From positions 788,416-852,415 of the forward strand of contig JBBCGY010000001.1 of NCBI GenBank assembly GCA_037200005.1: a stretch of 64,000 nt of DNA, read 5' to 3'. Position numbers and translations under genes: made by a program. Every line of letters begins with the position of its first letter. Position 1 is the stretch's first letter. The notes beneath the pieces were generated by a model. It made no database searches and was not told the origin of the DNA. It saw only the letters and a program-made list of their open reading frames with translations. Origin of the DNA: Alphaproteobacteria bacterium. Its GTDB lineage: Bacteria; Pseudomonadota; Alphaproteobacteria; UBA9219; RFNS01. Below are positions 38,112-52,602 of this stretch, piece by piece.

Positions 38112-38126
38112 GTGGGATTCGCGACT

Positions 38127-38393
38127 ATGACCATATCACTTTCCAATGTAGAATCGGCGCTCTTCGCTGAAGACATCGAGGGGTTGCTTGCGCTTGGTGC
38201 GCCAGATGACGAATATTTTCCTGAAGCAAAGGACATAACGGCGGCTTTGACCACATTGAGCAAGGATCGATTGACCGAGGCCAACGTCATTGCCGTTATT
38301 TCCTTGGTATGGGCAAAATATTTTGAGCTTTCAAACGATGATATCGAAAAGCGTATCCCCGCTTTCCGGCGCATCGCGCAAAATCTTTTGTAG
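38127..38393 (+). CDS. Putative immunity protein
   Basis: The small acidic protein has 88 residues from ATG 38127. The core LLALGAPDDEYFPEAKDITAAL resembles DUF1871-like and other small proteins with a GAPxDEYxxEA motif that occur as immunity proteins beside polymorphic toxins. The rest is helical (VIAVISLVWAKYFEL). Its position 15 bases behind the toxin-like gene, small size and acidic charge fit an immunity partner that blocks the basic C-terminal toxin domain. No function is proven. The second repeat copy, with a terminator, follows 21 bases after its stop and closes the unit. Confidence 0.5.
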   Translation: MTISLSNVESALFAEDIEGLLALGAPDDEYFPEAKDITAALTTLSKDRLTEANVIAVISLVWAKYFELSNDDIEKRIPAFRRIAQNLL

Positions 38394-38414: not shown

Positions 38415-38534
38415 TGGGAAATATCCCTTGACTTTGCCTTCGTCTTGAGATATTGACAATCCCCAGAGGGCTTGCGCCCGAAATCTGCCGAGCCGAATAG
38501 ATCCGCCGCGATGACGCATCCGGCGGATTTTTTA
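38415..38534 (+). repeat. Direct repeat, copy 2 (120 bp, with terminator)
   Basis: It matches copy 1 at 37251-37370 over its full length with about seven mismatches, 1164 bases downstream in the same orientation. It contains the same dyad and terminator hairpin (38499-38534). The portal gene starts 111 bases later. Confidence 0.95.
38499..38534 (+). terminator. Intrinsic terminator after the putative immunity gene
   Basis: GATCCGCCG and CGGCGGATT form the stem, followed by six T (38528-38533). It separates the toxin unit from the phage-like cluster, which therefore needs its own promoter at about 38540-38640. Confidence 0.8.
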
Positions 38535-38645: not shown

Positions 38646-39899
38646 ATGGCATTACGCAATTGGCTCGGCGGGCTTGCGAAGCAACCCGCCGTGAAGTCCA
38701 GCGCGGCCGGACCCCTGATCGCCTGGAGCCAGATCGGCCGGGCGAAATGGACGCCGCGCCGCTATGACGCGCTGGCGGAGGAAGGCTTTCGCAAGAATGT
38801 CGTCGCGTATCGCTGTATCAGCATGGTCGCCGGCGCCGCCGCGCAGATTCCATGGCTGCTATATGACGGCGAGGGGAGGGAACTGACATCGCATCCCCTG
38901 TTGCAGATTTTGGAGCAGCCCAATCCGCTGATGGACGGCGTCAGTTTCCGCGAGAATCTTTTCGCGGCATACCAGATCGCGGGCAATGTGTATATCGAGG
39001 CGGTGCGCCCCGATAGCGGCGCGCCGCGCGAATTATACCCGCTGCGTTCCGACAGGATGCGGGTGGTGCCGGGGCCGACCGGCTTTCCGCAGGGCTATGA
39101 ATATCAGGCCGGGGGCCAGACGATGCGCTGGAACGCCGATCCTCTGACCGGCGCCAGCAATATCCTGCATGTCAGGCATTATCATCCGCTCGACGACTGG
39201 TACGGGCTCGCGCCGCTGGAAGCGGCCTTGCTCGCCATCGATCAGCATAATGCCGCCGGCGGATGGAACCAGGCGCTGCTGAACAATGGCGCGCGTCCTT
39301 CCGGCGCTTTGGTTTTCGCGCCGAAGGAAGGCCCGGCGCATTTGTCCGAGGAGCAGGTGCGGCGGCTGAAAGATCAGCTCGACGAATATTATCAGGGCGC
39401 GCGCAATGCCGGAAAGCCCATGTTGCTCGAAGGCGGCCTAGACTGGCGGCCGATGAGCCTCAGCCCCCAGGATATGGACTGGCTGAAGGGCCGCGACGCC
39501 GCGGCGCGGGATATCGCCCTGGCTTTCGGCGTGCCGTCCCAGCTCGTAGGACTGCCGGACGCGCAGACCTACGCCAATATCAAGGAAGCGCGGCTGGCGT
39601 TCTATGAAGAGACGGTATTGCCGCTCGCGATGCGCTTCGTCGCTTCGTTCAATCACTGGATCGCGCCGATGTTCGGCGACGGTCTGGTTCTCGATCTCGA
39701 TCTCGACGAAGTCAGCGCGCTGGCGCAGCGCCGCGAGGCGGTCTGGGAAAAGCTTCAGCGCGTCGATTTCCTGACCATCAACGAAAAGCGCGACGCCGCC
39801 GGATACGGCCCGCTCGCCGACGGCGACCGTCTGGTATTCAGCGCCGCGCCCCTCTCTGCGCCATCGTCTTCATCGATAACCGAACGAGGTTCCCCATGA
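38646..39899 (+). CDS. Phage portal protein, HK97/GTA type
   Basis: The 417-residue protein is a dodecameric head vertex protein through which DNA enters and leaves the capsid. Features of the HK97-type portal family are VVAYRCISMVAGAAAQIPW near residue 50, HPLLQILEQPNPLMDG, ILHVRHYHPLDDWYGLAP, the clip/stem region with GGLDWRPMSLSPQDMDW, and VPSQLVGLPDAQTYANI. The length is like that of GTA portals. It is the first recognisable particle gene, but no terminase precedes it; the bases before it hold repeat copy 2 and a leader. Its stop overlaps the protease start (ATGA). Confidence 0.95.
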   Translation: MALRNWLGGLAKQPAVKSSAAGPLIAWSQIGRAKWTPRRYDALAEEGFRKNVVAYRCISMVAGAAAQIPWLLYDGEGRELTSHPLLQILEQPNPLMDGVSFRENLFAAYQIAGNVYIEAVRPDSGAPRELYPLRSDRMRVVPGPTGFPQGYEYQAGGQTMRWNADPLTGASNILHVRHYHPLDDWYGLAPLEAALLAIDQHNAAGGWNQALLNNGARPSGALVFAPKEGPAHLSEEQVRRLKDQLDEYYQGARNAGKPMLLEGGLDWRPMSLSPQDMDWLKGRDAAARDIALAFGVPSQLVGLPDAQTYANIKEARLAFYEETVLPLAMRFVASFNHWIAPMFGDGLVLDLDLDEVSALAQRREAVWEKLQRVDFLTINEKRDAAGYGPLADGDRLVFSAAPLSAPSSSSITERGSP

Positions 39900-40447
39900 C
39901 CGTGCGTCATTTCACCACGCCGCTTGAAATCAAGAATTACGGCGCCGACGGCCTTTTTTACGGCTATGCCAGCGTTTTCAATAAAATCGACTCTCATGAC
40001 GAAGCGGTCGCGCCCGGCGCGTTCCGCCGCACGCTCGCGAATTGGCGCGCCGAGGCGCGGATGCCCGCGATGCTGTGGATGCATGACGCGACCTTGCCGG
40101 TCGGCGTCTGGCTCGGCCTGACCGAAGACAAGGAAGGGCTTGCCGTCGAGGGGCGGCTGGCGCTCAGGACGCAGCGGGGATCGGAAGCTTACGAACTGCT
40201 CAAGATGGGGGCGGTGACCGGGCTTTCCATCGGCTATCGCGTGGCGGCGGCGCGGGCCGATGCCAGGCGAAAATTGCGGACATTGCTCGATATCGATCTG
40301 TTCGAAATTTCGCTGGTGACGTTTCCGGCGAACGACGCGGCTCGCGTGACGCGGGTCAAAACGCCGCTGCCCGTATCCGGCAATGCAACCCGCGCCATCG
40401 TCGCGCCGCTCTACCGGGCGGCGGAAGCATTGAGAACCCATATCTAG
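39896..40447 (+). CDS. HK97-family prohead protease
   Basis: The 183-residue serine protease cleaves the scaffold part of the capsid protein during head maturation. It has FYGYASVFNKIDSHDEAVAPGAF at the start (family signature of the U35/HK97 protease), the catalytic His in MLWMHD, the Ser in AVTGLSIGY and an acidic strand LFEISLVTFPANDAARV. It overlaps the portal gene by four bases and precedes the capsid gene, the standard portal-protease-capsid order of HK97 phages and GTAs. Confidence 0.95.
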   Translation: MTVRHFTTPLEIKNYGADGLFYGYASVFNKIDSHDEAVAPGAFRRTLANWRAEARMPAMLWMHDATLPVGVWLGLTEDKEGLAVEGRLALRTQRGSEAYELLKMGAVTGLSIGYRVAAARADARRKLRTLLDIDLFEISLVTFPANDAARVTRVKTPLPVSGNATRAIVAPLYRAAEALRTHI

Positions 40448-40468
40448 AACCACAACAGGAGAATGAAC

Positions 40469-41701
40469 ATGATCGACTCTATGGAAGTAAGAAAAGCGTC
40501 GGAGACGCTCGGCAGCGCCTTCGAGGAATACAAGATGGTGAACGACCAGCGGCTGGCCGAACTGGAACGGCGCGGCAGCAGCGACGTTCTGCTGACCGAC
40601 AAGCTCAGCCGTCTCGACAGCGGCATGACCAAATTGCAAGACGAGGTCAGCCAGGTGAAAACGGCCATGCGGCGTCCCGCGCTCGGCGGCAGCCAGGGCA
40701 AGATCGACGACGGCGCGGACGGCGAATACAAGCAAGGCTTCATGCGCTATATCACCAAGGGCGTCGAGCAGGACATGGCGAGCCTGCAGACCAAGGACCT
40801 CAATGTCATCAGCGATCCCGCCGGCGGTTATATGGTGCCGGCGGAGATGTCGGACCGGATCGTTAAGCGACAGTTCGATACGACGCCGATGCGCAGCCTC
40901 GCCACCGTGATGAGCGTGACCTCGGAAGCGATCGAAATGCTGCGCGATACCAACGAGCCGGACGCCGTGTGGGCGTCGGAGCTCGCGGCGCGCAGCGATA
41001 CCGCCGAAGGAACGCTTGGGCGCATCCGCATCCCGGCGCATGAGCTGTACGCCCAGCCGCGCGCGACGCAGAAACTGCTCGACGACGCCGTCATCAATGT
41101 CGAGGACTGGCTGGTCAACAAGGTGGCGGATAAATTCGCGCGCCGCGAAAGCAACGCTTTCGTCGTCGGCGACGGCGTGACGCAGCCGCGCGGCTTCGCC
41201 AGCTATGCGACGGCGGCGACCGGAGACAACAGCCGCTCATGGGGCGTTCTGGAGCATGTCATCACCGGCGCGGACGGCGCGTTTCCGGCGTCGAACCCGG
41301 CCGATCTGCTCATCACGCTGATGCATAAATTGCGGGTGGGCTATATGCCGGGCGCGGTGTGGCTGATGCCGCGCTCGGTCGCCGAGCAAATCCGCCGCTT
41401 CAAGGAAAATAGCACCAGCGCCTATATCTGGCAGCCGGGACTGCAGGCGGGAACGCCGGCGATGCTGCTCGGCTTTCCGATCATCCTGGCCGAGGATATG
41501 CCCGCCCCGGCGGCAAGCTCGCTGTCGGTCGCGTTCGGCAATTTCGCCGAGGGCTATACCATCGTCGACCGGATGGGCATCCGCATCCTGCGCGATCCCT
41601 ATACCGCGGCGCCTTTCGTCCGCTTCCGCTGCAACAAACGTGTCGGCGGCGACGTGACGAATTTCGAAGCGATCAAGTTCCTACGCTTCTCGGCAACGTA
41701 A
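40469..41701 (+). CDS. HK97-fold major capsid protein
   Basis: The protein is about 410 residues. I prefer ATG 40469, seven bases after AGGAG, to ATG 40463. A coiled-coil N-terminal delta domain of about 110 residues (with RLAELERRGSSDVLLTDKL) acts as scaffold and should be cut off by the protease near the segment before TKDLNVISDPAGGYMVPAEM. The HK97 fold then shows TTPMRSLATVMSV, RIRIPAHELYAQPRATQKLL, FVVGDGVTQPRGFASYA and the P-domain end PFVRFRCNKRVGGDVTNFEA. It is close to GTA capsid proteins in size and layout. Confidence 0.96.
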   Translation: MIDSMEVRKASETLGSAFEEYKMVNDQRLAELERRGSSDVLLTDKLSRLDSGMTKLQDEVSQVKTAMRRPALGGSQGKIDDGADGEYKQGFMRYITKGVEQDMASLQTKDLNVISDPAGGYMVPAEMSDRIVKRQFDTTPMRSLATVMSVTSEAIEMLRDTNEPDAVWASELAARSDTAEGTLGRIRIPAHELYAQPRATQKLLDDAVINVEDWLVNKVADKFARRESNAFVVGDGVTQPRGFASYATAATGDNSRSWGVLEHVITGADGAFPASNPADLLITLMHKLRVGYMPGAVWLMPRSVAEQIRRFKENSTSAYIWQPGLQAGTPAMLLGFPIILAEDMPAPAASSLSVAFGNFAEGYTIVDRMGIRILRDPYTAAPFVRFRCNKRVGGDVTNFEAIKFLRFSAT

Positions 41702-41712
41702 CACTGAACATT

Positions 41713-41750
41713 GTCATTCCGGCCTCACGCTTCGCGTGCTCCGGAATGAC
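41713..41750. repeat. Palindromic REP-like element after the capsid gene
   Basis: GTCATTCCGG (41713-41722) and CCGGAATGAC (41741-41750) form a perfect 10 bp inverted repeat, with an inner ACGC/GCGT. The arms look like the common GTCATTCC...GGAATGAC intergenic repeats of proteobacteria. It may tune the ratio of capsid to downstream products by slowing transcription or protecting mRNA. Confidence 0.7.
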
Positions 41751-41792
41751 AAGCTTCCCGCAACGGATTTATTTCCAACAAGGAGACCATCC

Positions 41793-42191
41793 ATGACCAC
41801 ACGCGATCTTAACGATAACGTCGACGCGGCGCAGAGTCTCGTGCCTGCCGCGCGCACCAACGGCACCCTCAACGGCGCGACGGTCGATTTGCGCGGCTAT
41901 GACAGCGCCATGATCGTCGTCAGCTTCGGCGCCTATACCGATGGCGCTCACACGCCTTCGGTGCAGTATTCCGACGACGGCACGAACTTCACCAATGCGG
42001 CCGCCGCCGATTTGAACGGCAGCTTCACGGCGGTCAGCAGCGGCGCGGGCGCGAATACCATGCAGAGGGCTGGATTCATCGGCGGGCGCCGTTACGTCCG
42101 GGCCGTGATGACGGTCAGCGGCGCGACCAGCGGCGCTCTGAGCGAAGCGCTGGTCCTGCGCGGCAAAGCGCATCGCTCGCCACTCGCATAA
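41793..42191 (+). CDS. Small beta-rich phage head protein
   Basis: The protein has 132 residues from ATG 41793, seven bases after AAGGAG. The sequence is beta-rich (VDLRGYDSAMIVVSFGAYTD, VQYSDDGTNFTNAAAADL, FIGGRRYVRAVMTVSGATSG). The GGRRYVRAVMTVSG pattern followed by a short basic C-terminus is typical of small proteins encoded just after the capsid gene in alphaproteobacterial prophages. The likely role is head decoration or stabilisation; this is from position and pattern, not a known domain. It shares the beta-sandwich character of the next gene product. Confidence 0.65.
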   Translation: MTTRDLNDNVDAAQSLVPAARTNGTLNGATVDLRGYDSAMIVVSFGAYTDGAHTPSVQYSDDGTNFTNAAAADLNGSFTAVSSGAGANTMQRAGFIGGRRYVRAVMTVSGATSGALSEALVLRGKAHRSPLA

Positions 42192-42204
42192 ACAGGAGGA
42201 ACGC

Positions 42205-42603
42205 ATGAGCCGTCACGGTAACTACGCAACAGCGACCATAAGCAGCGGCGCGTCGATCACGGGCGCGCTGAATCTCGACGCGATCTCCGGCGTCGCGGAG
42301 GCGGGCCAGGCCGTCTCGCAAAAACTCGGCATGAGGCTCGGCGGGATCGTCATGCCCGCCGCATGGACCGCCGCCGGCCTCACTTTCCAGGTGAGCGCGG
42401 ACGGGACGAGTTTTTTCGACTTGCGCGACAAGAACGACAATGAAGTGACCATGACGGTTTCGGCGGGCAAAGCCTATCTGCTCGACCTGGCCGATTGGGT
42501 GACGGTTCCGTGGATCAAGATACGCTCCGGCGCGTCGGCATCCGCCGTCAATCAGGGTGCCGACCGCACGCTGACGCTTTTGCTGCGGGCAACGGGAGTA
42601 TGA
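42205..42603 (+). CDS. Small beta-rich phage protein
   Basis: The protein has 132 residues from ATG 42205 behind AGGAGGA. The sequence includes LNLDAISGVAEAGQ, LTFQVSADGTSFFDLRDKN and VPWIKIRSGASASAVNQGA, the same lay-out as the upstream protein (a sandwich with a DGTxF turn and an I/VKIRSG strand). The two could be distant paralogues that decorate the capsid or form a spike base. No known domain is recognised. It ends just before the fibre-like gene and is part of the same tightly packed operon. Confidence 0.6.
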   Translation: MSRHGNYATATISSGASITGALNLDAISGVAEAGQAVSQKLGMRLGGIVMPAAWTAAGLTFQVSADGTSFFDLRDKNDNEVTMTVSAGKAYLLDLADWVTVPWIKIRSGASASAVNQGADRTLTLLLRATGV

Positions 42604-42607
42604 CGAT

Positions 42608-43858
42608 ATGAGCGTGCCCGTGATCTTAAGGCGGCGGCTGCGTCCGGCCTATCAGGCCGTGCTGTTGCAGGGATTGCCTCCGGCATTTTCCTTCACCCGC
42701 GCCAGCGCGGCGAATTATTTCAACGCGTCGGGCGCGCTGCAAAGCGCATCGAGCAATGCGCCGCGCTTCGATTACGATCCGGTATCGGGCGCGGCGCGCG
42801 GCTTGCTGATGGAGGGGCAATCGACCAATGTCATTCGCAACAGTGCGCTGGCGGGCGCGTCGGTGGGCGCGCCGGGATCCATGCCGACGAACATGGCGAA
42901 ATCGGCGCCGGCCGGCGTGACGCATTCCGTCGCCGGAACGGGAACCGAATACGGCATGCCCTATATCGACGTGCGGTTTCAGGGCGCGCCGGGCGCCACC
43001 GGCCAATGTTACCTGTCTTTTGAATTCGCCTCCAGCATAGCGGCCGCCCAAAATGATATATGGACGCTCAGCGCGTATGTGCGTCTGGCCGGGGGCACGC
43101 TGGCGAACATATCATCTCTGTCCGTAAGCATGAACGAATTTAATTCATCGTTGGCTTATGTGACCGGCGGATCGAACGCCTGCGCGCCGACGTCGACGTT
43201 GAAGCGCTATGCCCTGACGAGGACTCTCTCGAACGTGTCGACGGCTTTCCTGCAGCCTTTGATTAATTTCACCGTTACCAGCGGCCAGGCGATCGACGTT
43301 ACGTTCCGCTTCTATCAGCCGCAGCTGGAGAAATCCGCGCTGATGACGAGCGCCATCGTGACGGCCGGCTCGGCGGCGACGCGGGCGGCGGATATTTGCA
43401 CGATGCCGGTATCGGCGCTCGGATACAATGGTGCGTCGGGAGCGATTATTCTTAAAGGATCGATGCAATATGCCGGAACGTCAGGAACGCCGTGGCTTTT
43501 GTCGATGGATGACGGCACCTCCGGCAATCGTTTCGGACTGCATGCGGCGATGGGAAGTCCGCCGCGCATGTACGGAATGCTGAAATCGGGAGGATCGACG
43601 GTGTTCGATACGTCGTTTGGATCGATCAGCGCCGAAGCCGCGGAAACCGATGTCAAATGGGGCATGGGTTTCGCGCCCGGCTCGTTCCTGTCGTCGCGCA
43701 ACGGCCAGTCGGGCGCGAGCGGCGCGAGTTTCGCAAGCCCGGCGGTGACGACGCTGAATCTGGGCGGCGGCGACGCGGCCTGGAACGGCTGGATCAAGCA
43801 ATTCGATTTCTACAACATTCCTCTGACGCAAGCGCAACTCAACGCGAGAACGATTTAA
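42608..43858 (+). CDS. Phage fibre/spike protein with lectin-like fold
   Basis: The 416-residue protein has FSFTRASAANYFNASGALQSA, PRFDYDPVSGAARGLLMEGQ and STNVIRNSALAG in its first 80 residues. This is the known start of many phage tail or head fibre proteins. The remainder is Gly/Ser/Ala-rich beta structure, ending with a LamG/concanavalin-like pattern (GWIKQFDFYNIPLTQAQLNA). Such proteins bind surface glycans. It sits among head genes instead of after the tail tip, which resembles the head-spike genes of GTAs more than a tail fibre. No enzymatic residues are evident. Confidence 0.75.
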   Translation: MSVPVILRRRLRPAYQAVLLQGLPPAFSFTRASAANYFNASGALQSASSNAPRFDYDPVSGAARGLLMEGQSTNVIRNSALAGASVGAPGSMPTNMAKSAPAGVTHSVAGTGTEYGMPYIDVRFQGAPGATGQCYLSFEFASSIAAAQNDIWTLSAYVRLAGGTLANISSLSVSMNEFNSSLAYVTGGSNACAPTSTLKRYALTRTLSNVSTAFLQPLINFTVTSGQAIDVTFRFYQPQLEKSALMTSAIVTAGSAATRAADICTMPVSALGYNGASGAIILKGSMQYAGTSGTPWLLSMDDGTSGNRFGLHAAMGSPPRMYGMLKSGGSTVFDTSFGSISAEAAETDVKWGMGFAPGSFLSSRNGQSGASGASFASPAVTTLNLGGGDAAWNGWIKQFDFYNIPLTQAQLNARTI

Positions 43859-43870
43859 CACGAGGTGCCT

Positions 43871-44140
43871 ATGAGCTATATCGATCATTATTGGAGCGGC
43901 GCGGATAGAGCCGCTTTGGAAGAGAGCATTGCCGCATGCGGAACGGAATGCTCCGTTCTCGGCGTCCGCGAAGGCGGTGTCGCCGAACTGGATGAGGAAG
44001 GTTCTCCGACCGGCGCGGTTTATGGAGACGCGGGCATCTTCTACGCCGCGATCCGAAGTCCTTGCGCATTGCCGTTGCCGCAGGAATGCCAGCCTGCCGA
44101 TGCTTACATGTGCGTGAAGCTGTTCGGCGTTTGGGAATAA
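43871..44140 (+). CDS. Small phage-cluster protein, unrecognised
   Basis: The protein has 89 residues from ATG 43871, with GAGGTG six bases upstream. It is acidic, with MSYIDHYWSGADRAALEESI at the start and five Cys spread over the chain, unusual for this cluster. No known domain is recognised. Because it directly follows the fibre gene it might be a fibre chaperone or a tip cap. The arrangement is conserved only in the sense that small genes after fibres often encode assembly factors; this is a weak inference. Confidence 0.55.
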   Translation: MSYIDHYWSGADRAALEESIAACGTECSVLGVREGGVAELDEEGSPTGAVYGDAGIFYAAIRSPCALPLPQECQPADAYMCVKLFGVWE

Positions 44141-44154
44141 CACAAGGATATATC

Positions 44155-44745
44155 ATGCAATCGCTTGAACTGGCGGCCGCTCCAGCCGCCGAACCCGTCA
44201 CCCTGGCCGAAATCAAGAGCCATGCGCGGATTGAAACCTCTGCCGATGACGCTTTGCTGACGAATTTCATCGCGGCGGCGCGGCAATGGACCGAGCAATT
44301 CACCGGAAGGGCGATGATGACGCAGAGCTGGCGGTTATGGCTCGATGCGTGGCCGATGCGGGAGGATCGTTGCATTCAATGGGTCGAATTGCCGCGCGCG
44401 CCGCTTCAGGCGGTGAGCGAAGTGCGGCTATACAAGCGGGACGGCAGTTTCGACACCTGGTCCGGCGCGAATTACCAGGTCGATGCCGCCGCGCAGCCGG
44501 GACGGCTCGCGCTGCCCTATGATCAGGCATGGCCCGGCACGTCCCGCGCAGTGCAAGCGATCCGGATCGATTTCACGGCGGGCTATGCGAGCGCCGCGCT
44601 GGTGCCGGAGCCGATCAAGGCGGCCATACGCCAGCTCGCGGCTCATTGGTATGAGCATCGCGGCGCGGGCGGCGCGACGCTGCATGAGATTCCCTATGGC
44701 GTGCAGGCGCTGCTGGCTCCCTATGTCGTGCGGTCGCTGTCATGA
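44155..44745 (+). CDS. Head-tail connector protein, phiE125 gp8/HK97 gp6 type
   Basis: The protein has 196 residues from ATG 44155. The first 70 residues (AAEPVTLAEIKSHARIETSA, DDALLTNFIAAARQWTEQFT, GRAMMTQSWRLWLDAWP) match the connector family that docks under the portal and forms the head-tail adaptor ring. The C-terminal part (PEPIKAAIRQLAAHWYEHRG) completes the helical bundle. GTA gene 6 belongs to this family. Its stop overlaps the following start (ATGA). Its presence implies that some tail structure is attached to the head. Confidence 0.88.
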   Translation: MQSLELAAAPAAEPVTLAEIKSHARIETSADDALLTNFIAAARQWTEQFTGRAMMTQSWRLWLDAWPMREDRCIQWVELPRAPLQAVSEVRLYKRDGSFDTWSGANYQVDAAAQPGRLALPYDQAWPGTSRAVQAIRIDFTAGYASAALVPEPIKAAIRQLAAHWYEHRGAGGATLHEIPYGVQALLAPYVVRSLS

Positions 44746-45155
44746 CGGCGGCGAGACCGGGGAGGAATTTACTGCTGCGGGACGGCACGGCTGCGGATGC
44801 GCCGGTCATCGCGGCGATGCGGCAGACCACGCTGAGCGTCATCGCCGCGCCGGTGGATGTGACCGACCGCGACAGCGCGGGCGGCTGGCGAGAATTGCTT
44901 CCCGGCGCGGGTCCGGCGCGGGTGCGGATCGAGGCCGAAGGGCGGCTGGAGGGGGCCGTGCAAGGTTCGACGCTGATGGCGCGCGCCATAGGCCGCACCG
45001 CGGACGCCTATCGCGTCGAATATGATAACGGCGATTATTTGCACGGGTTGTTTCAGATCGCCCGCCTGGAGGCGCAAGGCGGCGCCGAAGGCGAGCAGAG
45101 TTACAGCCTGGTTCTGGAATCCGCCGCGGCGCTGACCCATGGGACGGCCGGATAG
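44742..45155 (+). CDS. Putative head-tail joining (adaptor/stopper) protein
   Basis: The 137-residue protein overlaps the connector gene by four bases. A beta-barrel pattern follows an N-terminal tail: DVTDRDSAGGWRELLPG, PARVRIEAEGRLEGA, YRVEYDNGDYLHGLFQIARL and SYSLVLESAAAL. The GGWxE...VRIEA...GxxYLI-like order recalls the phage head-tail joining family (stopper proteins, GTA gene 7), but it is diverged. Position right after the connector supports the role. An alternative is a small tail terminator or tail protein. Confidence 0.6.
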   Translation: MTAARPGRNLLLRDGTAADAPVIAAMRQTTLSVIAAPVDVTDRDSAGGWRELLPGAGPARVRIEAEGRLEGAVQGSTLMARAIGRTADAYRVEYDNGDYLHGLFQIARLEAQGGAEGEQSYSLVLESAAALTHGTAG

Positions 45156-45166
45156 AAGGATAAATC

Positions 45167-45514
45167 ATGCCAAGCGTTCGATTTTACAAGCCGCCGCGCC
45201 GCAGAGCGCCGCGCGCGCGGATGATGCGTCAGCCGCGCGAGAACGATTCCTGGTCGCAGGTCGACCGCGCATTATTTCCTGCCGCCGATATGCAGAGCAT
45301 CGTCGATCAGCTTGAGCAGAGATTGACGCGCACGTTGCTTGCGAAACTCGCGGTGCAGCCTCTGCAGCAATTCGGCGCGGCGCTGGGCGGCGAAACGGCT
45401 GGCGCGCTCTCCGGACTGTTCGATTCAGGCGGCGCTTACGACTTTCAGCCCAGCCGATCGCAAGTGGCGTCCCTGTTCGGCGATTGGATCGGCCAGGCGG
45501 AAGACCTTTTTTAG
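45167..45514 (+). CDS. Small protein at the usual tail tube/tape measure position
   Basis: The protein has 115 residues from ATG 45167 behind AAGGAT. The N-terminus is strongly basic (PPRRRAPRARMMRQPRE), the rest helical: MQSIVDQLEQRLTRTLLAKL, VQPLQQFGAALGGETAGAL, SGLFDSGG. The helix and Gly-rich turn resemble the last part of small tape measure proteins of GTAs, where a similar ALAPLxxxFGxALGGLFSG stretch occurs, but the match is weak. It fills the only space between the adaptor and DUF2460 genes, where tail tube, chaperone and tape measure genes would be expected. Confidence 0.55.
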   Translation: MPSVRFYKPPRRRAPRARMMRQPRENDSWSQVDRALFPAADMQSIVDQLEQRLTRTLLAKLAVQPLQQFGAALGGETAGALSGLFDSGGAYDFQPSRSQVASLFGDWIGQAEDLF

Positions 45515-45523
45515 GATGAAAAT

Positions 45524-46150
45524 ATGAGTTTCGATGAAACGCAGTTACCGTTGCGCATAGGCTTCGGCGCGCGCGGCGGGCCGTCTTTCGCGACCGAGAT
45601 CGTCGCGATCGACGGCGGCTACGAAAGGCGCAACCAGAATTGGAGCCAGGCGCGCCGCCGTTACGATGCGCGCACGGGATTGCGCTCCGCCGACGATGCC
45701 GCCGCTCTTCTGGCGTTCTTTCATGCCAGAGCCGGGCGCGCACGCGGATTCCGCCTGAAAGACTGGGCGGATTTCACCAGCGCGGCGAACGGCGTCGGCG
45801 CGCCGCTGTGGAGCAATCAGGCGGTTGCCGTTGGCGACGGCGTGGCGACGCAATTCCAGCTCGTTAAAATTTATACGAGCGGCGGGGTGACGCACCGGCG
45901 CTTGATCCGCAAGCCCGTGGCCGGGTCGGTGACGATCGGCGTGAACGGCGCGCAGGTCGTGAGCGGCTGGAGTGTCGATGTCACGACCGGGATCGTCAGT
46001 TTCGCCGTAGCGCCCGCGAACGCCGCGACGATCACCGCGGGCTATGTATTCGACGTGCCGGTGCGGTTCGATACGGACGCCCTTTCGCTTGCCGCCGAGG
46101 ATTTCACGTCTTTCCGCACCGACATTCCCATCATCGAAATCAGAGTCTGA
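45524..46150 (+). CDS. DUF2460 distal tail protein (GTA gene 12 family)
   Basis: The 208-residue protein matches the DUF2460 (TIGR02217) family, the distal tail protein ring at the lower end of GTA tails. It shows LRIGFGARGGPSFATEIVAI, YERRNQNWSQARRRYDARTG, FFHARAGRARGFRLKDWADF and the end RFDTDALSLAAEDFTSFRTD. The N-terminus starts like the family although the usual FPxxIA opening is changed. It starts at ATG 45524 after AGGATG. Its stop overlaps the next start (TGATG). The hub proteins encoded next should sit on this ring. Confidence 0.93.
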   Translation: MSFDETQLPLRIGFGARGGPSFATEIVAIDGGYERRNQNWSQARRRYDARTGLRSADDAAALLAFFHARAGRARGFRLKDWADFTSAANGVGAPLWSNQAVAVGDGVATQFQLVKIYTSGGVTHRRLIRKPVAGSVTIGVNGAQVVSGWSVDVTTGIVSFAVAPANAATITAGYVFDVPVRFDTDALSLAAEDFTSFRTDIPIIEIRV

Positions 46151-46998
46151 TGAAAACCCTTTCTCCTGCCTTGCAAGAGCATCTCGCGGGCGAGCTGGCG
46201 ACGTTGAGCTATCTCGTCAAGATCACGCGCCGCGACGGCACGGTACGCGGCTTCACCAATCACGACCGCGATATCGTTCTCGATGGCGTGACCTATAAGG
46301 CCGACGGCGCGTTCAGCCCCTCGGCCATCGCCAGCACCAGCAAGCTCGCGGCCGATAATCTCGAGATCGGCGGCATCACGGGGAACGACATCACCGCCGC
46401 CGATCTCGCGGCGGGCAGATACGACCATGCGCGGGCCGATGTGTATGTCTGCAATTGGGCCGATCTCGGCCAGGGCGCGCTGCAATTGCGGCGCGGATGG
46501 CTGGGTGAAGTGACGCTGGCGGGCGAGCGTTATACGGCGGAATTGCGCGGGCTGCACGACCTGCTGCCTCGCGAATTCGGCGATTATTATACGGCGGAAT
46601 GCCGTCACGATCTCGGCGACGTGCACTGCGCGGTCGCTCTCGCGCCGCTCACGGTGACAGGGGCCGTGACAACGGTGATTGACACCGCTAATTTCCTCGA
46701 CGCGTCGCGCGCCGAAGCGGACGGTCTTTTCGATCACGGAAAACTGCAATGGACGACCGGCGCGAATAGCGGCCTTGCGGTCGAGGTCAAGAAATGGGAC
46801 GCGACGCTGAGTCAGTTCGTCTTATGGCTTCCGCTGCCGAATCCGATAGCGGTGGGCGACGCCTATACGGTTTATGCGGGTTGCGACAAGCGGCTTGCCA
46901 CCTGCAAGGATAAGTTCGGCAATCTGGCGAATTTCGGCGGTTTTCCGCATATGCCGGGCGTCGATAAAATCCTGCAATATCCCGACGGCAAGCCATGA
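46150..46998 (+). CDS. DUF2163 baseplate hub protein (GTA gene 13 family)
   Basis: The 282-residue protein belongs to the DUF2163 (TIGR02218) family: LATLSYLVKITRRDGTVRGF, TNHDRDIVLDGVTYKADGAF, DNLEIGGI and RRGWLGEVTLAG. Four Cys in two groups (TAEC and VHC; AGC and ATC) at about residues 152, 159, 240 and 247 recall the metal or iron-sulfur site of lambda gpL-like hub proteins. In GTAs this protein forms the hub between the distal tail ring and the tip. Translation is coupled on both sides (TGATG before, ATGA after). Confidence 0.93.
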   Translation: MKTLSPALQEHLAGELATLSYLVKITRRDGTVRGFTNHDRDIVLDGVTYKADGAFSPSAIASTSKLAADNLEIGGITGNDITAADLAAGRYDHARADVYVCNWADLGQGALQLRRGWLGEVTLAGERYTAELRGLHDLLPREFGDYYTAECRHDLGDVHCAVALAPLTVTGAVTTVIDTANFLDASRAEADGLFDHGKLQWTTGANSGLAVEVKKWDATLSQFVLWLPLPNPIAVGDAYTVYAGCDKRLATCKDKFGNLANFGGFPHMPGVDKILQYPDGKP

Positions 46999-47405
46999 CC
47001 GAAGCGCAGGTTACAGCCATGATCGCGGCGGCGCGCGGCTGCATCGGCACGCCGTTTCATCATCAGGGGCGGTTGCCGGGAACGGGACTCGATTGCATCG
47101 GCCTTGTGATCGTCGCGCTGCGGGCGGCGGGCATGACGGTGAATGATCGGCAGGATTATAGCCGCCGTCCCGACGGCGCGAGCCTTGCCGAAGCTTTGGC
47201 CGCGCATGGAGCGTCCGTCGTCGCGGACATCGTGGCGGGCGATGCGCTGCTGTTCGCTTTCGACGGCGCGCCGCAGCATGTCGCGCTGGCCGCTTCGCCG
47301 GACCGGATCATTCACGCTTACGCGCCTGCCGGGAAGGTGATCGAAACTTTTCTGAGCGCGCCATGGCGGCGCCGTCTTATCGCTTCTTATCGTTTCGGCG
47401 GGTAA
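46995..47405 (+). CDS. NlpC/P60 cell wall peptidase (GTA gene 14 family)
   Basis: The 136-residue protein has the catalytic Cys in TGLDCIGLVIVALRAAG, the His in PQHVALAASP and a third polar residue in RIIHAYAPAG. It has no signal peptide, as expected for a particle-borne enzyme. In GTAs and siphophages this peptidase sits in the tail tip and cuts peptidoglycan peptides to let DNA cross the wall. It overlaps the DUF2163 gene by four bases and is followed after three bases by the tip protein gene, matching the GTA order 12-13-14-15. Confidence 0.94.
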   Translation: MTEAQVTAMIAAARGCIGTPFHHQGRLPGTGLDCIGLVIVALRAAGMTVNDRQDYSRRPDGASLAEALAAHGASVVADIVAGDALLFAFDGAPQHVALAASPDRIIHAYAPAGKVIETFLSAPWRRRLIASYRFGG

Positions 47406-47408
47406 ATC

Positions 47409-50400
47409 ATGGCTTCCATCGTTCTCAGCGCCGCGGGCAACGCCGTTTTGCCGGGGGTCGGCGGCATTCTCGGCAAGCTCGCCGGAGGCGCTATCGATCG
47501 GCAATTTGGATTCGGCGCGCGCAAGAGCGAGGGGCCTCGTCTCGAAAACCTCAAAGTGCAGGATTCGCGCTACGGCGCGGGCATTCCCATCATCTATGGC
47601 CGCGCGCGCATCGCCGGGCAAGTCATCTGGTCGAGCGATCTTATCGAAACCGTCCATGAGGAGGATGCCGGCGGCAAAGGTGGAACCGGCGGCGCTTCGT
47701 CCAGGCGCTATAGCTATAGCGTCAATTGCGCCGTGGCGATCGGCAAGGGGCCTATCGGCCAGATTACGGCGGCCTGGGCCGATGGCAAGCAAATCTATGA
47801 CGGGCTGAACTGGAAGGCCGGTCTTGCCGCCAGCGTCAATTTCTATCCCGGCGATCAAATGCAGAATCCCGATCCGGTGATGGAAGCGGCGCTGGGCGCG
47901 GGAAATGTTCCCGCCTATCGCGGCACCGCCGTGATCGTCTTCGAGAATATGCAGCTTGCCGATTTCGGCAGCCGGCTGCCGAATCTAAGCTTCGAGGTGA
48001 CGGCGGGAAGCGCGTCCGCCGCGCCATTGGCCGCCGAGAATGTCGTGCCGGATTTGCAAAATACGCAAACCGGCCTTGCCACGCATGGCGGGACGCCGCC
48101 GCTTGTCATCAGCGGCGATGCGCGGCGCGCGAACCAGGCGATCGTCGCGGGAATGCGCAATGCCACGGCGGCGGGAAGCGATGCCGCCTTCATCGTCACG
48201 ACCTGCGCGCTGGGAGACGAAGCGCCCGGCGAGCTTGCCCGCGTTGTTTCCGCGGATTTCTCCATCGACGCCATCGTCGGCGTCGTAAGCTGGTCATTAT
48301 CTCCCGACGGACGCTACGCCGCGATCATCGCCCTGACCGACATGGTGCCGAATACCCTCGTGTCGCTGGCGATTTACGATACGCAGGCGCGGCAATTCGG
48401 GCCGGTGGCGCAAGTCACGATGAAAAACTTCGTCAAATCCGTCGCCTGGCTAGACGCGCTGCGTTTCGTGGTTTCGGATCATGACGGCAGCCAGCTGGGG
48501 GTGCAGATTTTCGCCCGCGCTGGCCTTACTATCGTATCCCTTGGGTTTCGCGGCGTATGGGGCGCGGGTTCGGCGGGCAGCCGCGCCACAGTCGGTACGG
48601 CGCAATTCATTCTCTTGCAGGGCGGGCTGCTCTATTGCGCCGGCAATACGTGGATAAGCCCATCGACGCTTTATCTTTGCCATATGCGCTGGGGGGCGGG
48701 AGGCCTTGTCTGCGGCGCGCCTTATACGCTCAGCGCTTCGGTGCCCGCCAATAGTTTGAATCACGCGGACATTATTCCGATAGGGCCGGGAGAATTCCTG
48801 TTCTGCTTCGCCAAGACCGACCGCGTGCATGTCATGAGCTTCATGCCCACGGCTTCGGGGGTCGTGGTCACGCGCAACTGGCAGGTCGTGACGTTGGCGG
48901 CGATCAGCACGTATGTCTCGCCTTGCCGGTTCGGAGGGCATATCCTGCTGCTGCAGAAATCGATTTTCGACGGGCAATACCGGCTGTCCGAAATCGCGCT
49001 CGGAGCCGGAAGTTTCACCCTCGCGACCGACAGCGTGCCGGTCGAAGGCGGCGAAGCCTTCGGCAGCACGCACTTCATGCCGATGGTGATCGATTACAAC
49101 CGGATTCTGATTCAAGGCGGAGACAGTTTCGGCCTCGACTTCTCGGAGCTGCGCATCATCAGCCGGTATGCGGGCGGCGATAGCCTGCAGAACATCGTCG
49201 CCGATATCCTGGCGCAAGCCGGTTACGCTCCGGGCGATAGTGCGCTTGACGTTCTCGCGCCCATTCGCGTGACGGGATACGTCCTGCAGCCGCCGCTCAC
49301 GGCGCGCGCGGCGCTGGAGCCGCTCAGGCTTTACGGCGCCTTCGATCTGATCGAAAGCGACGACAGGCTCAAGGCGGTCGCACGACACGGCGATATCGAC
49401 GCGGCGCTGGAGGATGGCGAGCTTGGGGCCGCCAAGGATGCCAGCCGCGCGCCGCCGCCGCTGACGATCACGCGCAAGCAGGAGCTCGACCTTCCGCTTG
49501 AGATATCGGTCGATTATATCGATCCGGCGCGCGATTTCGAGATCGGCAGCGTCCGCTCGCGCCGCATCGCTTCGGCGGCGACCGCGCGCGGCAAGCTCGC
49601 GATGCCGGTCATATGCAGCGCCGACCGGGCCAAGCAAATCGCCGAGGCCCGGCTCTATGCCGCATGGGCGGAGAGGGAACAGGCGCGCATGACGCTCTCG
49701 CGCCGCTATCTGTTTCTCGATCCCGGCGACGTGGTGCAGGCCGGGCAGCGCAGCTTCCGGCTGACCTCCGTGCATCAATCGGGCGGATTGATGCAATGCG
49801 ACGCCATCAATAACTACGCGCCCGCGAATGCCAGCGCGGCGAAAGCCGATATCGGCAATATCAACGCGCCCGCCAGGGAGGCCGCCGACAGCATCCTGTA
49901 TCTTATGGATCTGCCGCCGCTGAACGCGAGCGATCAGCCCGGCATTTACGCCGCCGTCAGCGCCGCGCCGGGCTGGCGCGGCGGATCATTGTGGCGCGCC
50001 GGCGACGGCGTGACTTACGCTTCGGTCGATTCCTTCCAGGTGGCGGCGACGGCGGGAATGGCGCTGACCGCGCTTGCCGCGCAGGCGGCGGATTATATGG
50101 ATCGCGTTGGCAGCGTCGATGTGCAGCTGATCCGCGGGACTCTGGCGAGCTGCGGCGATCCGGAATTGCTGAACGGCGCGAACGCGGCTTTGCTCGGCGG
50201 CGAGATCATCCAATTTCGTACTGCGACTCTGCTGGGGCCGGGCTATTACCGCCTGACCGATTTTTTGCGCGGACGGCGCGGAACCGAAGACGCCATCGCC
50301 GCGCATCAGGTTGGCGAGAATTTCATCATGCTGAATAGCGCCGCGATGCACCTTCTGCCGTTGCGCGCGGAAGACAGGGGGCGGGGCTATCAGTATCGCG

Positions 50401-50804
50401 CGCTGACGGCGGGGCAGAGTCTCGGCGGCGTGCTGGATACGAATTTCACCAGCGATTTGCGCATTTGGCGGCCGTTATCGCCCGCGCAGCTTCAAGGAGC
50501 GCGGGCGTCAGGAACGGGCAGCGATCTTGCGCTCGGCTGGGTGCGCCGCGCCCGGCTGAATGCCGAATGGACGGATTTGATCGACGTGCCGCTCGACGAG
50601 GCTCAGGAATTGTACGATCTGGAAATTTACGACAGCGGCGACATTTTGAAGCGCGCGGTCAGCGGCCTGACGGCGGCAAGCTACGTTTATACCGCCGCGC
50701 AGCAGAGCGCCGACTTCGCCATCGTTCCGGCCAGTTACCGGGTGCGCGTGTATCAGGTCAGTCCGCGCTATGGGCGCGGCGCGGCGGCGCTCGGCGTTAT
50801 TTAA
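47409..50804 (+). CDS. GTA gp15-like tail tip protein with beta-propeller-like insert
   Basis: The protein has 1131 residues. The N-terminal 200 match the GTA gp15 start (YGAGIPIIYGRARIAGQVIW, YSYSVNCAVAIGKGPIGQI, VPAYRGTAVIVFENMQLADF). The part from about 590 on matches the Phage-tail_3 region (SLQNIVADILAQAGYAPGDS, LTARAALEPLRLYGAFDLIE) and later tip domains (PGYYRLTDFLRGRRGTEDAI). Between them, where GTAs carry a TIM-barrel glycosidase domain, residues about 225-580 form repeated beta-strands with SPDGRYAAIIAL and YDTQARQFGPV turns, like a beta-propeller. I see no TIM-barrel catalytic motif. The product is probably the receptor-contact tip or a wall/glycan-binding device. Confidence 0.85.
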   Translation: MASIVLSAAGNAVLPGVGGILGKLAGGAIDRQFGFGARKSEGPRLENLKVQDSRYGAGIPIIYGRARIAGQVIWSSDLIETVHEEDAGGKGGTGGASSRRYSYSVNCAVAIGKGPIGQITAAWADGKQIYDGLNWKAGLAASVNFYPGDQMQNPDPVMEAALGAGNVPAYRGTAVIVFENMQLADFGSRLPNLSFEVTAGSASAAPLAAENVVPDLQNTQTGLATHGGTPPLVISGDARRANQAIVAGMRNATAAGSDAAFIVTTCALGDEAPGELARVVSADFSIDAIVGVVSWSLSPDGRYAAIIALTDMVPNTLVSLAIYDTQARQFGPVAQVTMKNFVKSVAWLDALRFVVSDHDGSQLGVQIFARAGLTIVSLGFRGVWGAGSAGSRATVGTAQFILLQGGLLYCAGNTWISPSTLYLCHMRWGAGGLVCGAPYTLSASVPANSLNHADIIPIGPGEFLFCFAKTDRVHVMSFMPTASGVVVTRNWQVVTLAAISTYVSPCRFGGHILLLQKSIFDGQYRLSEIALGAGSFTLATDSVPVEGGEAFGSTHFMPMVIDYNRILIQGGDSFGLDFSELRIISRYAGGDSLQNIVADILAQAGYAPGDSALDVLAPIRVTGYVLQPPLTARAALEPLRLYGAFDLIESDDRLKAVARHGDIDAALEDGELGAAKDASRAPPPLTITRKQELDLPLEISVDYIDPARDFEIGSVRSRRIASAATARGKLAMPVICSADRAKQIAEARLYAAWAEREQARMTLSRRYLFLDPGDVVQAGQRSFRLTSVHQSGGLMQCDAINNYAPANASAAKADIGNINAPAREAADSILYLMDLPPLNASDQPGIYAAVSAAPGWRGGSLWRAGDGVTYASVDSFQVAATAGMALTALAAQAADYMDRVGSVDVQLIRGTLASCGDPELLNGANAALLGGEIIQFRTATLLGPGYYRLTDFLRGRRGTEDAIAAHQVGENFIMLNSAAMHLLPLRAEDRGRGYQYRALTAGQSLGGVLDTNFTSDLRIWRPLSPAQLQGARASGTGSDLALGWVRRARLNAEWTDLIDVPLDEAQELYDLEIYDSGDILKRAVSGLTAASYVYTAAQQSADFAIVPASYRVRVYQVSPRYGRGAAALGVI

Positions 50805-50818
50805 CAGGAGAAAACACC

Positions 50819-51412
50819 ATGACCAATACCCCCAATCTTGCGATGGCCTACATCGCGGCCGGGCAGGCGCAGAAGGAAGTCACGCATAATGACGCGCTGA
50901 ACGATCTCGACGCGCTGGCGAAATTGTCCGTCATCGACAGGACGACGAACGCGCCGCCGGGTTCGCCCGCCACCGGCGACGCCTATATCATCGGATCGTC
51001 GCCGACGGGAGCCTGGAGCGGATTTGCCGGAAAAGTCGCGGCATGGTACGCGGGCTGGAAGATCAAGACGCCGCTCGCCGGATGGACGGCATGGGTGCGC
51101 GCCGAAAACAGGATGCTGTATCATACCGGCAGCGCATGGAGCAATCTCGCGACGCCGTTTCTCGAGGCGTCGTCGACATGGGATCCCGCCAGCATGGGCG
51201 CGGGAACCGGGCAAACTTCGTCGGGCATTACCGTGACCGGCGCGGCCTTCGGCGATTTCGCCCGCGTCGCCGCGCCTTACGATCTTCAAGGCGTTACTGC
51301 AACCGCTTATGTCAGCGCCGCGAACACCGTCGTCATCCGCCTGCAGAACGGCACCGGCGGCACGATCGACCTGGCTTCTGGAAGCTGGAAAGTCAGAGTC
51401 GTCAAACAATAA
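50819..51412 (+). CDS. DUF2793 phage protein
   Basis: The protein has 197 residues from ATG 50819 after AACAGGAG. The N-terminal DUF2793 domain shows TPNLAMAYIAAGQAQKEVTH, NDALNDLDALAKLSVIDRTT and the AWYAGWKIKTPLAGWTAWVR strand pair, typical of proteins encoded near tail tips in alphaproteobacterial phages and GTAs. The C-terminal 80 residues are a Gly/Thr-rich beta domain ending TIDLASGSWKVRVVKQ, which could bind the tip or a fibre. The function of the family is unknown; a fibre-attachment or receptor-binding role is likely from position. Confidence 0.85.
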   Translation: MTNTPNLAMAYIAAGQAQKEVTHNDALNDLDALAKLSVIDRTTNAPPGSPATGDAYIIGSSPTGAWSGFAGKVAAWYAGWKIKTPLAGWTAWVRAENRMLYHTGSAWSNLATPFLEASSTWDPASMGAGTGQTSSGITVTGAAFGDFARVAAPYDLQGVTATAYVSAANTVVIRLQNGTGGTIDLASGSWKVRVVKQ

Positions 51413-51425
51413 TACGGGAAAAACC

Positions 51426-51698
51426 ATGAAAGCGCGCAACTGGCAGATGGACCGGAGGATTTCGCTCGGCCTGATCGCGGCGCTTTTGCTTCAGGCGGGA
51501 TCGGCGATCTGGTGGGCCGCGGGCAAGGAGCAGCAGGATCGCTTTCAGGACAGCCGCCTGGTTCAGGCCGAGGCCGCGATGATCCGCCAGAGCGGCGATC
51601 AGGCCCTGATCGCCGAACGGCTGGCGCGCATCGAGGCGCGCATGGAAAGCCAGATCGAGATTTTGAAAAATATCGAGAAGCGTCTGGGGCGCGATTGA
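51426..51698 (+). CDS. Small membrane-anchored coiled-coil protein (lysis cassette)
   Basis: The protein has 90 residues from ATG 51426. A basic start (MKARNWQMDRR) is followed by one TM segment (ISLGLIAALLLQAGSAIWWA) and a charged coiled coil (RLARIEARMESQIEILKNIE). This is the layout of i-spanin-like Rz or of DUF2730-type phage proteins. Position just before lysozyme supports a lysis role, but no o-spanin lipoprotein gene is seen. Its stop overlaps the lysozyme start by one base (TGATG). Confidence 0.7.
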   Translation: MKARNWQMDRRISLGLIAALLLQAGSAIWWAAGKEQQDRFQDSRLVQAEAAMIRQSGDQALIAERLARIEARMESQIEILKNIEKRLGRD

Positions 51699-52198
51699 TG
51701 GACGATACGGTTGGAATCGCTTTGGCCCGGCATGCGTTCGGGCCACGGCGGATCAACCAGGCGGGGCTGCGGCTCATCAAGGATTTCGAGGGGCTGCGCC
51801 TCACCGCCTATCTTTGCCCCGCCAAGATATGGACGATCGGCTATGGCCATACGCAGGCGGCGCGGCCGGGCATGACGATCACGGCAGAGCAGGCCGAATT
51901 GCTGCTCGAGGATGATCTGCATCCCATCGAGCAGCATGTCGAAAAATCCGCGCAGGTTCCGCTCGGCGATAACCAGTTTTCCGCGCTGGTGTGTTTTGCC
52001 TTCAATGTGGGAAGGACGAATTTCTCGCAATCGACATTGCTTCGCCTGCTCAATCGCGGCTGGTACGAGCAGGTTCCGGCGCAGCTTTCGCGCTGGAACC
52101 GCGCGCGCGGCGAGGCGCTTGGCGGCCTCGCGCGCCGCCGCGCGGCGGAGGCGAGATTATGGAACAGGCCGGATGACGGAGCGGGGAGGCAATCATGA
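51698..52198 (+). CDS. Phage lysozyme (endolysin), GH24 family
   Basis: The 166-residue muramidase has the GH24 core: catalytic Glu in IKDFEGLRLTAYLCPAKIW, then TIGYGHTQA. The position of the classical Asp is Cys (AYLCPA), giving a Glu-Cys-Thr triad, a variant also seen in other phage endolysins of this family. The second lobe has DNQFSALVCFAFNVGRTNF and RWNRARGEALGGLARRRAAE. There is no signal peptide, so export depends on the holin encoded next. It overlaps both neighbours (TGATG, ATGA), forming a compact lysis cassette. Confidence 0.94.
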   Translation: MDDTVGIALARHAFGPRRINQAGLRLIKDFEGLRLTAYLCPAKIWTIGYGHTQAARPGMTITAEQAELLLEDDLHPIEQHVEKSAQVPLGDNQFSALVCFAFNVGRTNFSQSTLLRLLNRGWYEQVPAQLSRWNRARGEALGGLARRRAAEARLWNRPDDGAGRQS

Positions 52199-52602
52199 TT
52201 ACGGATATTATTTCGGCGGTGGCGTCGATCCTGGACAAGATCATCCCCGATCCCAAGCAGCGCGAGGAAGCCAAGCTCAATCTGCTCAAGGCCGAGAACC
52301 AGCAGGCGCTGGAAGAGGCGAAAGCGGGCATGGCCGCGATCCTGGCCGAGGCGCAGAGCCAGGATAAATGGACGTCCCGCGCCCGGCCGTCGTTTCTCTA
52401 TGTCGTCTATGTGATGCTGCTCAGTGCCATCCCGATGGGCATTGTCTATGCCGTCAGTCCGGCGACGGCGGGCGATATCACCAAGGGCTATCAGGCCTGG
52501 CTCGCGGCGATTCCCGAACCCATTGTCCGGCTATTCGAAATGGTGATGTTGGGATATATTTGTGGGCGAAGCTGGGAGAAAATAAAGACGAAGTCAAAAT
52601 AA
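52195..52602 (+). CDS. GTA-type holin (3TM family)
   Basis: The protein has 135 residues from ATG 52195, which overlaps the lysozyme stop (ATGA). An amphipathic charged helix (PDPKQREEAKLNLLKAENQQ) precedes TM segments LYVVYVMLLSAIPMGIVYAV and IVRLFEMVMLGYICGRSW; the pattern matches the GTA/phage 3TM holin family (PF11351-like) with its RPSFLYVVYVML motif. The product should permit release of the lysozyme. It is the last gene of the one-strand cluster. The acyltransferase gene on the other strand ends 13 bases further on. Confidence 0.9.
   Translation: MITDIISAVASILDKIIPDPKQREEAKLNLLKAENQQALEEAKAGMAAILAEAQSQDKWTSRARPSFLYVVYVMLLSAIPMGIVYAVSPATAGDITKGYQAWLAAIPEPIVRLFEMVMLGYICGRSWEKIKTKSK

What the first reader, a model, noticed from the sequence alone, without database searches (positions are those of the whole stretch)
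38646..52602. Compact GTA-like cluster with no terminase, tail tube or tape measure gene
Seventeen densely packed plus-strand genes run from portal to holin in about 14.0 kb, close to the size of the Rhodobacter GTA cluster. Portal, protease, capsid, connector, DUF2460, DUF2163, NlpC peptidase and gp15 follow GTA order. Yet the space between adaptor and DUF2460 is only 0.37 kb and holds a single 115-residue protein, so no tail tube, tail chaperone or full tape measure is encoded. Terminase, integrase and repressor are also absent. Either these parts are encoded elsewhere (a split GTA), or the particle has a tip mounted almost directly on the head, or the locus is decaying. The intact frames and coupled starts argue against decay.
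Basis: partly seen in the sequence, partly recalled or inferred. Interest (0 to 1): 0.85.

Follow-up and report, generated by a model that had tools for sequence, protein, structure and literature searches.

The report
Split, short-tailed gene transfer agent
This is a bacterium's own DNA-transfer particle (a gene transfer agent related to that of Rhodobacter) whose genes are scattered over at least three places in the chromosome and whose tail appears cut down to one kind of tube ring; its relatives show the same trend and slot bacterial toxin genes among the particle genes.

Summary
Window 38646-52602 is a real RcGTA-type structural cluster (18 plus-strand genes by my count). The key claim "no tail tube" is wrong: 44742-45155, probably the gene read as the adaptor, is the tail tube (PDB match to Rcc01691, 4e-13; Pfam 2e-18), and the true adaptor is 44152-44745. 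The missing terminase is not lost. An intact orthologous TerL lies about 820 kb away, and a GafZ-like regulator lies in a third place; relatives keep gafZ-terS-terL-portal together. The TerL and portal operons share an exact 27-base leader core (promoter, then intrinsic terminator) found at only five sites in 2.36 Mb, which argues for one co-expressed, split GTA. What is really missing genome-wide is the stopper, the tail terminator and a full tape measure. Related families show the same reduction: 24 genomes of one family lack any convincing tail tube, while G002 in the window's own family keeps stopper and terminator but no tube. Best reading: a split GTA making a very short tail, under purifying selection; decay remains the main rival. 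An unexpected extra: toxin genes with one shared N-terminal module sit almost only in these clusters, and some portals are fused to that module.

The parts
37251..37369 (+). leader repeat copy 1: TTGATT-N17-TATTGA promoter, conserved initial transcribed sequence, intrinsic-terminator hairpin
   Evidence: 95% identical to copy 2 over 119 bp; leader fold z -3.1; core occurs only 5 times in the genome, reversed control 0
37410..38111 (+). polymorphic-toxin-like gene: 'YIRSGHVPP...PRVPAGSPDGGQWTDGG' N-terminal module plus DUF4258-like C-terminus
   Evidence: (PF14076, 23.6 bits, just under the 25-bit cut-off)
38112..38393 (+). candidate immunity gene (93 aa)
   Evidence: 49% identical homolog downstream of the same toxin type in L037 (G017)
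38415..38533 (+). leader repeat copy 2, upstream of the portal operon
   Evidence: z -2.8
38646..39899 (+). portal protein
   Evidence: PF04860 1.2e-87; TIGR01537
39896..40447 (+). prohead protease (S78)
   Evidence: PF04586 1.1e-32
40463..41701 (+). HK97-type major capsid protein
   Evidence: PF05065 1.3e-79
41736..42191 (+). probable capsid decoration protein
   Evidence: phrog_5707 4e-26; weak PDB match 8cjz_B capsid decoration protein E 0.014
42205..42603 (+). 132-aa protein, possible head decoration; homologs in relatives
   Evidence: no PDB match of note
42608..43858 (+). 416-aa tail/head-fibre-like protein
   Evidence: phrog_5939 1e-36
43865..44140 (+). 91-aa protein of unknown role
   Evidence: open frame only
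44152..44745 (+). head-tail adaptor (Rcc01688 type)
   Evidence: PDB 6tba_2A 8.7e-12; TIGR02215 1.3e-42
44742..45155 (+). tail tube protein (Rcc01691 type), start overlaps the adaptor stop
   Evidence: PF06199 2e-18; PDB 6tba_5A 4.2e-13
45167..45514 (+). 115-aa helical protein in the tape-measure position; candidate shortened tape measure
   Evidence: position; similar short proteins in relatives; low-confidence model, helices 39-72 and 97-114
45524..46150 (+). distal tail protein (Rcc01695/DUF2460)
   Evidence: TIGR02217 9.5e-67
46150..46998 (+). baseplate hub (Rcc01696 type)
   Evidence: TIGR02218 8.5e-71
46995..47405 (+). NlpC/P60 tail peptidase (Rcc01697 position)
   Evidence: PF00877 9e-8
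47409..50804 (+). megatron (Rcc01698 type), central region replaced by a propeller-like segment
   Evidence: PDB 6tba_8A 1.1e-60 over 584-1127, 8gtc_M over 17-201; NF048004 526 bits, below the 800-bit cut-off
50801..51412 (+). DUF2793 tail-fibre-like protein
   Evidence: PF10983 2e-26; PDB 8gtc_S 1.7e-7
51426..51698 (+). 90-aa protein with a TM-like N-terminus (possible spanin/holin partner)
   Evidence: frame and homologs in relatives
51695..52198 (+). phage-type lysozyme
   Evidence: PF00959 2.9e-45
52195..52602 (+). GTA holin (3TM)
   Evidence: PF11351 1.6e-23

Best explanation
A vertically inherited RcGTA-type gene transfer agent that has been split and tail-reduced. Shown: the structural operon (38646-52602) lacks terS-terL, which lie about 820 kb away, and a GafZ-like regulator lies at a third site; the TerL and portal operons share a leader whose core is found at only five sites in the genome; stopper, terminator and full tape measure are not detected in the genome, while tube, adaptor and baseplate are kept. 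Inferred: a sigma-70 promoter starts both operons, RNA polymerase normally stops at the leader hairpin, and GafZ-type antitermination lets it through, so the split parts are made together. TerL packages host DNA into the head, and a few (perhaps one) tube rings joined directly to the adaptor, gauged by the 115-aa protein, carry the baseplate. The result would be a GTA with a very short tail.
For: TerL: one PF03237 hit over the cut-off in G000, 445 aa open, 53-61% identical to the TerL next to portal in most order relatives. GafZ/DUF6456: G000 C1:502081-502335, and directly upstream of terS-terL in many relatives. Leader: exact 27-base core upstream of the toxin unit, the portal operon and the TerL operon, 5 sites at up to 3 mismatches in 2.36 Mb, reversed control 0; terminator stems keep pairing with different letters. 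Antitermination of a GTA by GafZ is known in Caulobacter (PMC11150451). No stopper, terminator or full tape measure in G000, against tube plus tape measure between adaptor and DUF2460 in all 73 outside clusters measured. Families f2 and f3 are monophyletic in the portal and capsid trees, as for vertical descent. Purifying selection: pN/pS 0.3-0.6 for most genes.
Against: No particle or transfer data. Stopper and terminator are part of the RcGTA tail (PMC7296036), so their loss could mean a dead particle. The small terminase reading frame beside TerL looks interrupted near its start. Some relatives have clearly broken copies (G007 portal-to-megatron deletion, G014 portal with a stop). dS is near saturation, so the selection estimate is rough and does not isolate the G000 branch. 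The role of the 115-aa protein is unproven (model pLDDT 54). The hairpin/antitermination step is inferred only.
Confidence: 0.52

Rival explanations
1. A GTA in early decay: rearrangements broke it up, stopper and terminator were lost, and remaining genes are still open because the loss is recent or because lysis or other genes are kept for another use.
For: Stopper, terminator and full tape measure missing; interrupted small-terminase frame; a truncated toxin copy at C1:1818619; relatives G007, G014, G017 with broken or deleted portals.
Against: All 18 frames in the window open and partly overlapping; pN/pS 0.3-0.6 for most genes; branch lengths not raised; TerL and its leader intact 820 kb away; the same reduced states recur in several lineages with intact frames.
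Confidence: 0.3
2. A normal-length tail is made: stopper and terminator roles are filled by proteins too diverged to detect or borrowed from another element (for example the 91-aa protein, or another phage's genes).
For: Rcc stopper, terminator and tube proteins share under 19% identity, so sequence searches can miss them (PMC7296036); PF06199 alone missed G001's tube, which the order's own model found.
Against: Models built from the order's own stoppers and terminators find them in 29 and 22 genomes but not in G000; adaptor and tube genes overlap, leaving no room; the 91-aa protein is not in the usual position and matches no neck family.
Confidence: 0.12
3. An ordinary prophage remnant rather than a GTA.
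For: Lysozyme, holin and HK97-type head genes are shared with phages; portal matches phage portals up to 49% identity.
Against: Closest homologs are GTA proteins; orthologous clusters in many species of the order, in two families at one pcnB-linked site with a GafZ gene; trees follow host families; no integrase or replication genes.
Confidence: 0.04
4. Assembly artefact: the terminase and neck genes really lie next to portal and were misassembled.
For: Genome in 2 contigs of unknown assembly quality.
Against: TerL sits inside a coherent host region of a 1.83-Mb contig; the portal operon has its own leader; separate TerL loci also occur in class-level genomes G037, G045, G049 and G052.
Confidence: 0.02

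Closest known systems
RcGTA of Rhodobacter capsulatus (PMC7296036)
   Same: Portal, protease, capsid, adaptor, tube, distal tail, hub, peptidase, megatron; similar cluster size and order; TerL and GafA-type regulator present in the genome
   Different: No stopper, terminator or full tape measure; terS-terL and regulator at separate sites; lysozyme and holin inside the cluster; central megatron region replaced; toxin-immunity-like pair upstream
CcGTA of Caulobacter crescentus, GafYZ control (PMC11150451)
   Same: GafZ-domain protein and a promoter followed by a terminator before the structural genes, fitting antitermination
   Different: Here the terminator lies in the leader of each operon and the operons are apart; GafZ binding not tested; GafY not sought
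MuF-type phage polymorphic toxins (PMC5576092, PMC3482391)
   Same: Toxin domains coupled to head/packaging genes and found beside portal or terminase genes
   Different: The N-terminal module is not a MuF match; carried by GTA clusters; some portals themselves carry the module and, in G051, a colicin E5 domain

Membership tests
RcGTA-type gene transfer agents | Homologs of RcGTA head, tube and baseplate proteins | tested here: met
RcGTA-type gene transfer agents | RcGTA gene order | tested here: met
   order kept for genes present; compared with relatives and named genomes
RcGTA-type gene transfer agents | Own large terminase | tested here: met
   present but about 820 kb away
RcGTA-type gene transfer agents | Stopper, tail terminator and full tape measure | tested here: not met
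   no match in the genome
RcGTA-type gene transfer agents | Vertical inheritance, no integration or replication genes | tested here: met
   no such genes in the cluster
RcGTA-type gene transfer agents | GafA/GafYZ regulator | tested here: met
   DUF6456 (GafZ-type) protein at C1:502081-502335, E 1.1e-7; GafY part not tested
RcGTA-type gene transfer agents | Particles that carry random host DNA and transfer it | not testable with these tools
   needs culture
MuF polymorphic toxins | MuF domain (PF04233 and relatives) | tested here: not met
   no such Pfam hit for the window toxin or relatives' versions
Polymorphic toxins in general | Constant N-terminus with interchangeable toxin C-termini and a downstream immunity gene | tested here: met
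   constant module; Colicin E5 above cut-off in two, DUF4258 and CHAP-like (below cut-off) in others; candidate immunity partner; activity not tested

The most novel reading that the evidence does not exclude
In this alphaproteobacterial order GTAs have become short-tailed particles in which the homologous ring proteins (stopper, terminator, tube) are interchangeable enough that different species keep different ones, and the particles carry polymorphic toxins (free cassettes or portal fusions) along with host DNA.
Probability: 0.22. Interest if true: 0.9.

Novelty: new variant of a known kind. Interest (0 to 1): 0.72.

Why it matters
RcGTA stopper, terminator, tube and distal tail proteins are thought to come from one ancestral gene (PMC7296036). 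A lineage in which different species keep different members of that set is a natural experiment on how few ring types a working DNA-injection tail needs. It also suggests that a GTA can stay under selection after its packaging genes move far away, held together by a shared promoter-terminator leader, and it points to a possible coupling of gene transfer with toxin delivery that I did not find described.

Tried and rejected
PF06199 alone undercounts tubes (missed G001); repeated with an order-specific model. The leader core is not GTA-exclusive in all relatives: in G020 one copy precedes an rplU-like gene and G026 has several non-GTA copies, so I claim specificity only for G000. The C2:410157 core copy leads to no GTA gene. 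Rfam finds only tRNA-Lys near the cluster. The toxin has no phage match by tblastn; a viral-contig scan with the toxin module was not possible. The 115-aa fold gave low confidence. The generic promoter/terminator scans do not pick out the leader, so the leader claim rests on repetition, conservation and folding. Prophage remnant and assembly error considered and set low.

Full report
What is there. The window lies at 788416-852415 of the larger contig of a 2.36-Mb alphaproteobacterial genome, two contigs, 95% complete. From 38646 to 52602 there are 18 plus-strand genes, several with overlapping starts and stops. Pfam, PHROG and NCBIfam identify portal, prohead protease, capsid, adaptor, tail tube, distal tail protein, hub, NlpC peptidase, megatron, DUF2793, lysozyme and GTA holin.

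What is missing, measured. I built models of stopper, terminator and tape measure from relatives and searched 59 genomes. The window's genome has none of the three. Across clusters outside the order (22 named genomes and 51 IMG/VR contigs) the adaptor-to-DUF2460 stretch is at least 1.5 kb and always holds tube and tape measure; here it is 769 bp with tube and a 115-aa protein.

The order-wide pattern. Family f2 (5 genomes) keeps stopper, terminator and tube; in G004 and G008 a 212-213-aa tape measure has moved between hub and peptidase, G006 also has one, and none was found in the fragmentary G010 and G012. Family f3 (24 genomes, some incomplete) has no convincing tube even with an order-specific model (two weak hits at E 0.005 and 0.04); 16 have a stopper and 8 a terminator. 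In clusters L041, L042 and L049 the terminator is followed by one short protein (103-136 aa) and then DUF2460, with toxin cassettes sometimes in between. In the window's own family, G002 keeps stopper and terminator without tube, whereas G000 and G001 keep tube without a stopper or terminator in the cluster (G001 has one weak stopper match on another contig). In RcGTA these rings are homologous hexamers: one stopper, one terminator and five tube rings, with a tape measure whose 113-residue helix lies in the tube (PMC7296036). If the 115-aa protein is a shortened tape measure (modelled helix of about 34 residues, low confidence), roughly one tube ring would be spanned; this is inference.

The split. 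In most relatives TerL lies directly upstream of portal, and in many a GafZ-type DUF6456 gene lies just before it. In G002 and G014, from different families, the same pcnB gene and a divergent XRE/S24-type repressor flank it. In G000 terS-terL is at C1:1.66 Mb and gafZ is beside hrcA at C1:0.50 Mb. The trees keep f2 and f3 together, as for vertical descent. TerL and portal lie on opposite strands, so one large inversion between them could explain that part of the split; not tested.

Shared leader. An approximately 119-bp element precedes both the toxin unit and the portal operon (95% identical), with related copies before the TerL operon and before a truncated toxin copy. The 27-base core TTGACAATCCCCAGAGGGCTTGCGCCC occurs at five places in the genome at up to three mismatches and none for the reversed control; three are exact and all head GTA-linked units. 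By eye it has TTGACT-N17-TATTGA hexamers (TTGATT in one copy) followed by a hairpin with a T run; stems differ in letters but keep pairing. A TATTGACARTCCCACGGCG-type version stands upstream of terS-terL in many f3 genomes. GafZ-mediated antitermination is established in Caulobacter (PMC11150451), so I propose the same here.

Intact or decaying? Frames are open, pN/pS is 0.3-0.6 for most genes against several relatives (0.8 for one fibre-like gene comparison), and branch lengths are not raised. Against: an interrupted small-terminase start, loss of neck genes, and plainly broken copies in a few relatives. I give decay 0.3.

Toxin cassettes. The gene at 37410-38111 has a 70-90-aa N-terminal module ending in PRVPAGxPDGGQWTDGG and a DUF4258-like C-terminus, followed by a candidate immunity gene. 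A model of the module gives 20 matches in 59 genomes, of which 17 lie in GTA clusters or beside separated GTA genes. C-termini differ: Colicin E5 ribonuclease (above cut-off) in G025 and in the portal fusion of G051, and CHAP-like (below cut-off) in G017. Portals of G005 and G051 carry the full motif, and G013 and G016 a variant, at the C-terminus. MuF toxins next to portal genes are the nearest known analogue (PMC5576092, PMC3482391); full-text search found no report of such toxins in GTAs. Delivery by the particle is untested.

Verdict. An RcGTA-type element, genuinely split, with a reduced tail. Not tailless: the tube is there. Membership in the RcGTA kind holds except for the neck and tape-measure genes, so it is best called a new variant.

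Noticed in passing
window 37410-38393; L172:10033-10713; L036, L037, L041, L042, L046, L033: Polymorphic-toxin-like genes with a shared PDGGQWT N-terminal module lie almost only inside GTA clusters of this order; C-termini include Colicin E5, DUF4258-like and CHAP-like domains.
   Followed up: partly
L041:3242-4960, L042:4958-6697, L043, L029/L176: Portal proteins of 570-611 aa carry the same linker motif and variable C-terminal domains; in G051 the domain is a colicin E5 ribonuclease (8.5e-10).
   Followed up: partly
window 47409-50804, residues about 202-583: The megatron lacks similarity to the central RcGTA region and has a segment weakly matching a designed beta-propeller (5e-5).
   Followed up: no
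L172:9133-9540 minus: The small terminase beside TerL has its likely start and its main body in different frames; error, programmed shift or decay not resolved.
   Followed up: partly
L197 (G021:C177): Homologs of the 132-aa and 416-aa head/fibre genes sit away from the main cluster behind the same type of promoter: another dispersed GTA unit.
   Followed up: no
L204 (G020:C48), L199-L203 (G020, G026): The same promoter-like element occurs upstream of an rplU-like gene and other non-GTA genes in two genomes, so it may be a spreading strong promoter.
   Followed up: no
L183 about 5150 (G000:C2:410157): Orphan copy of the leader core near an insertion-sequence transposase, with no co-directed GTA gene.
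   Followed up: yes
L050 (G007), L034 (G014): Clearly broken GTAs: portal fused to a megatron fragment by deletion in G007; portal interrupted by a stop in G014.
   Followed up: partly
L213-L292: Many IMG/VR 'viral' contigs of about 14-17 kb look like GTA clusters rather than viruses.
   Followed up: no
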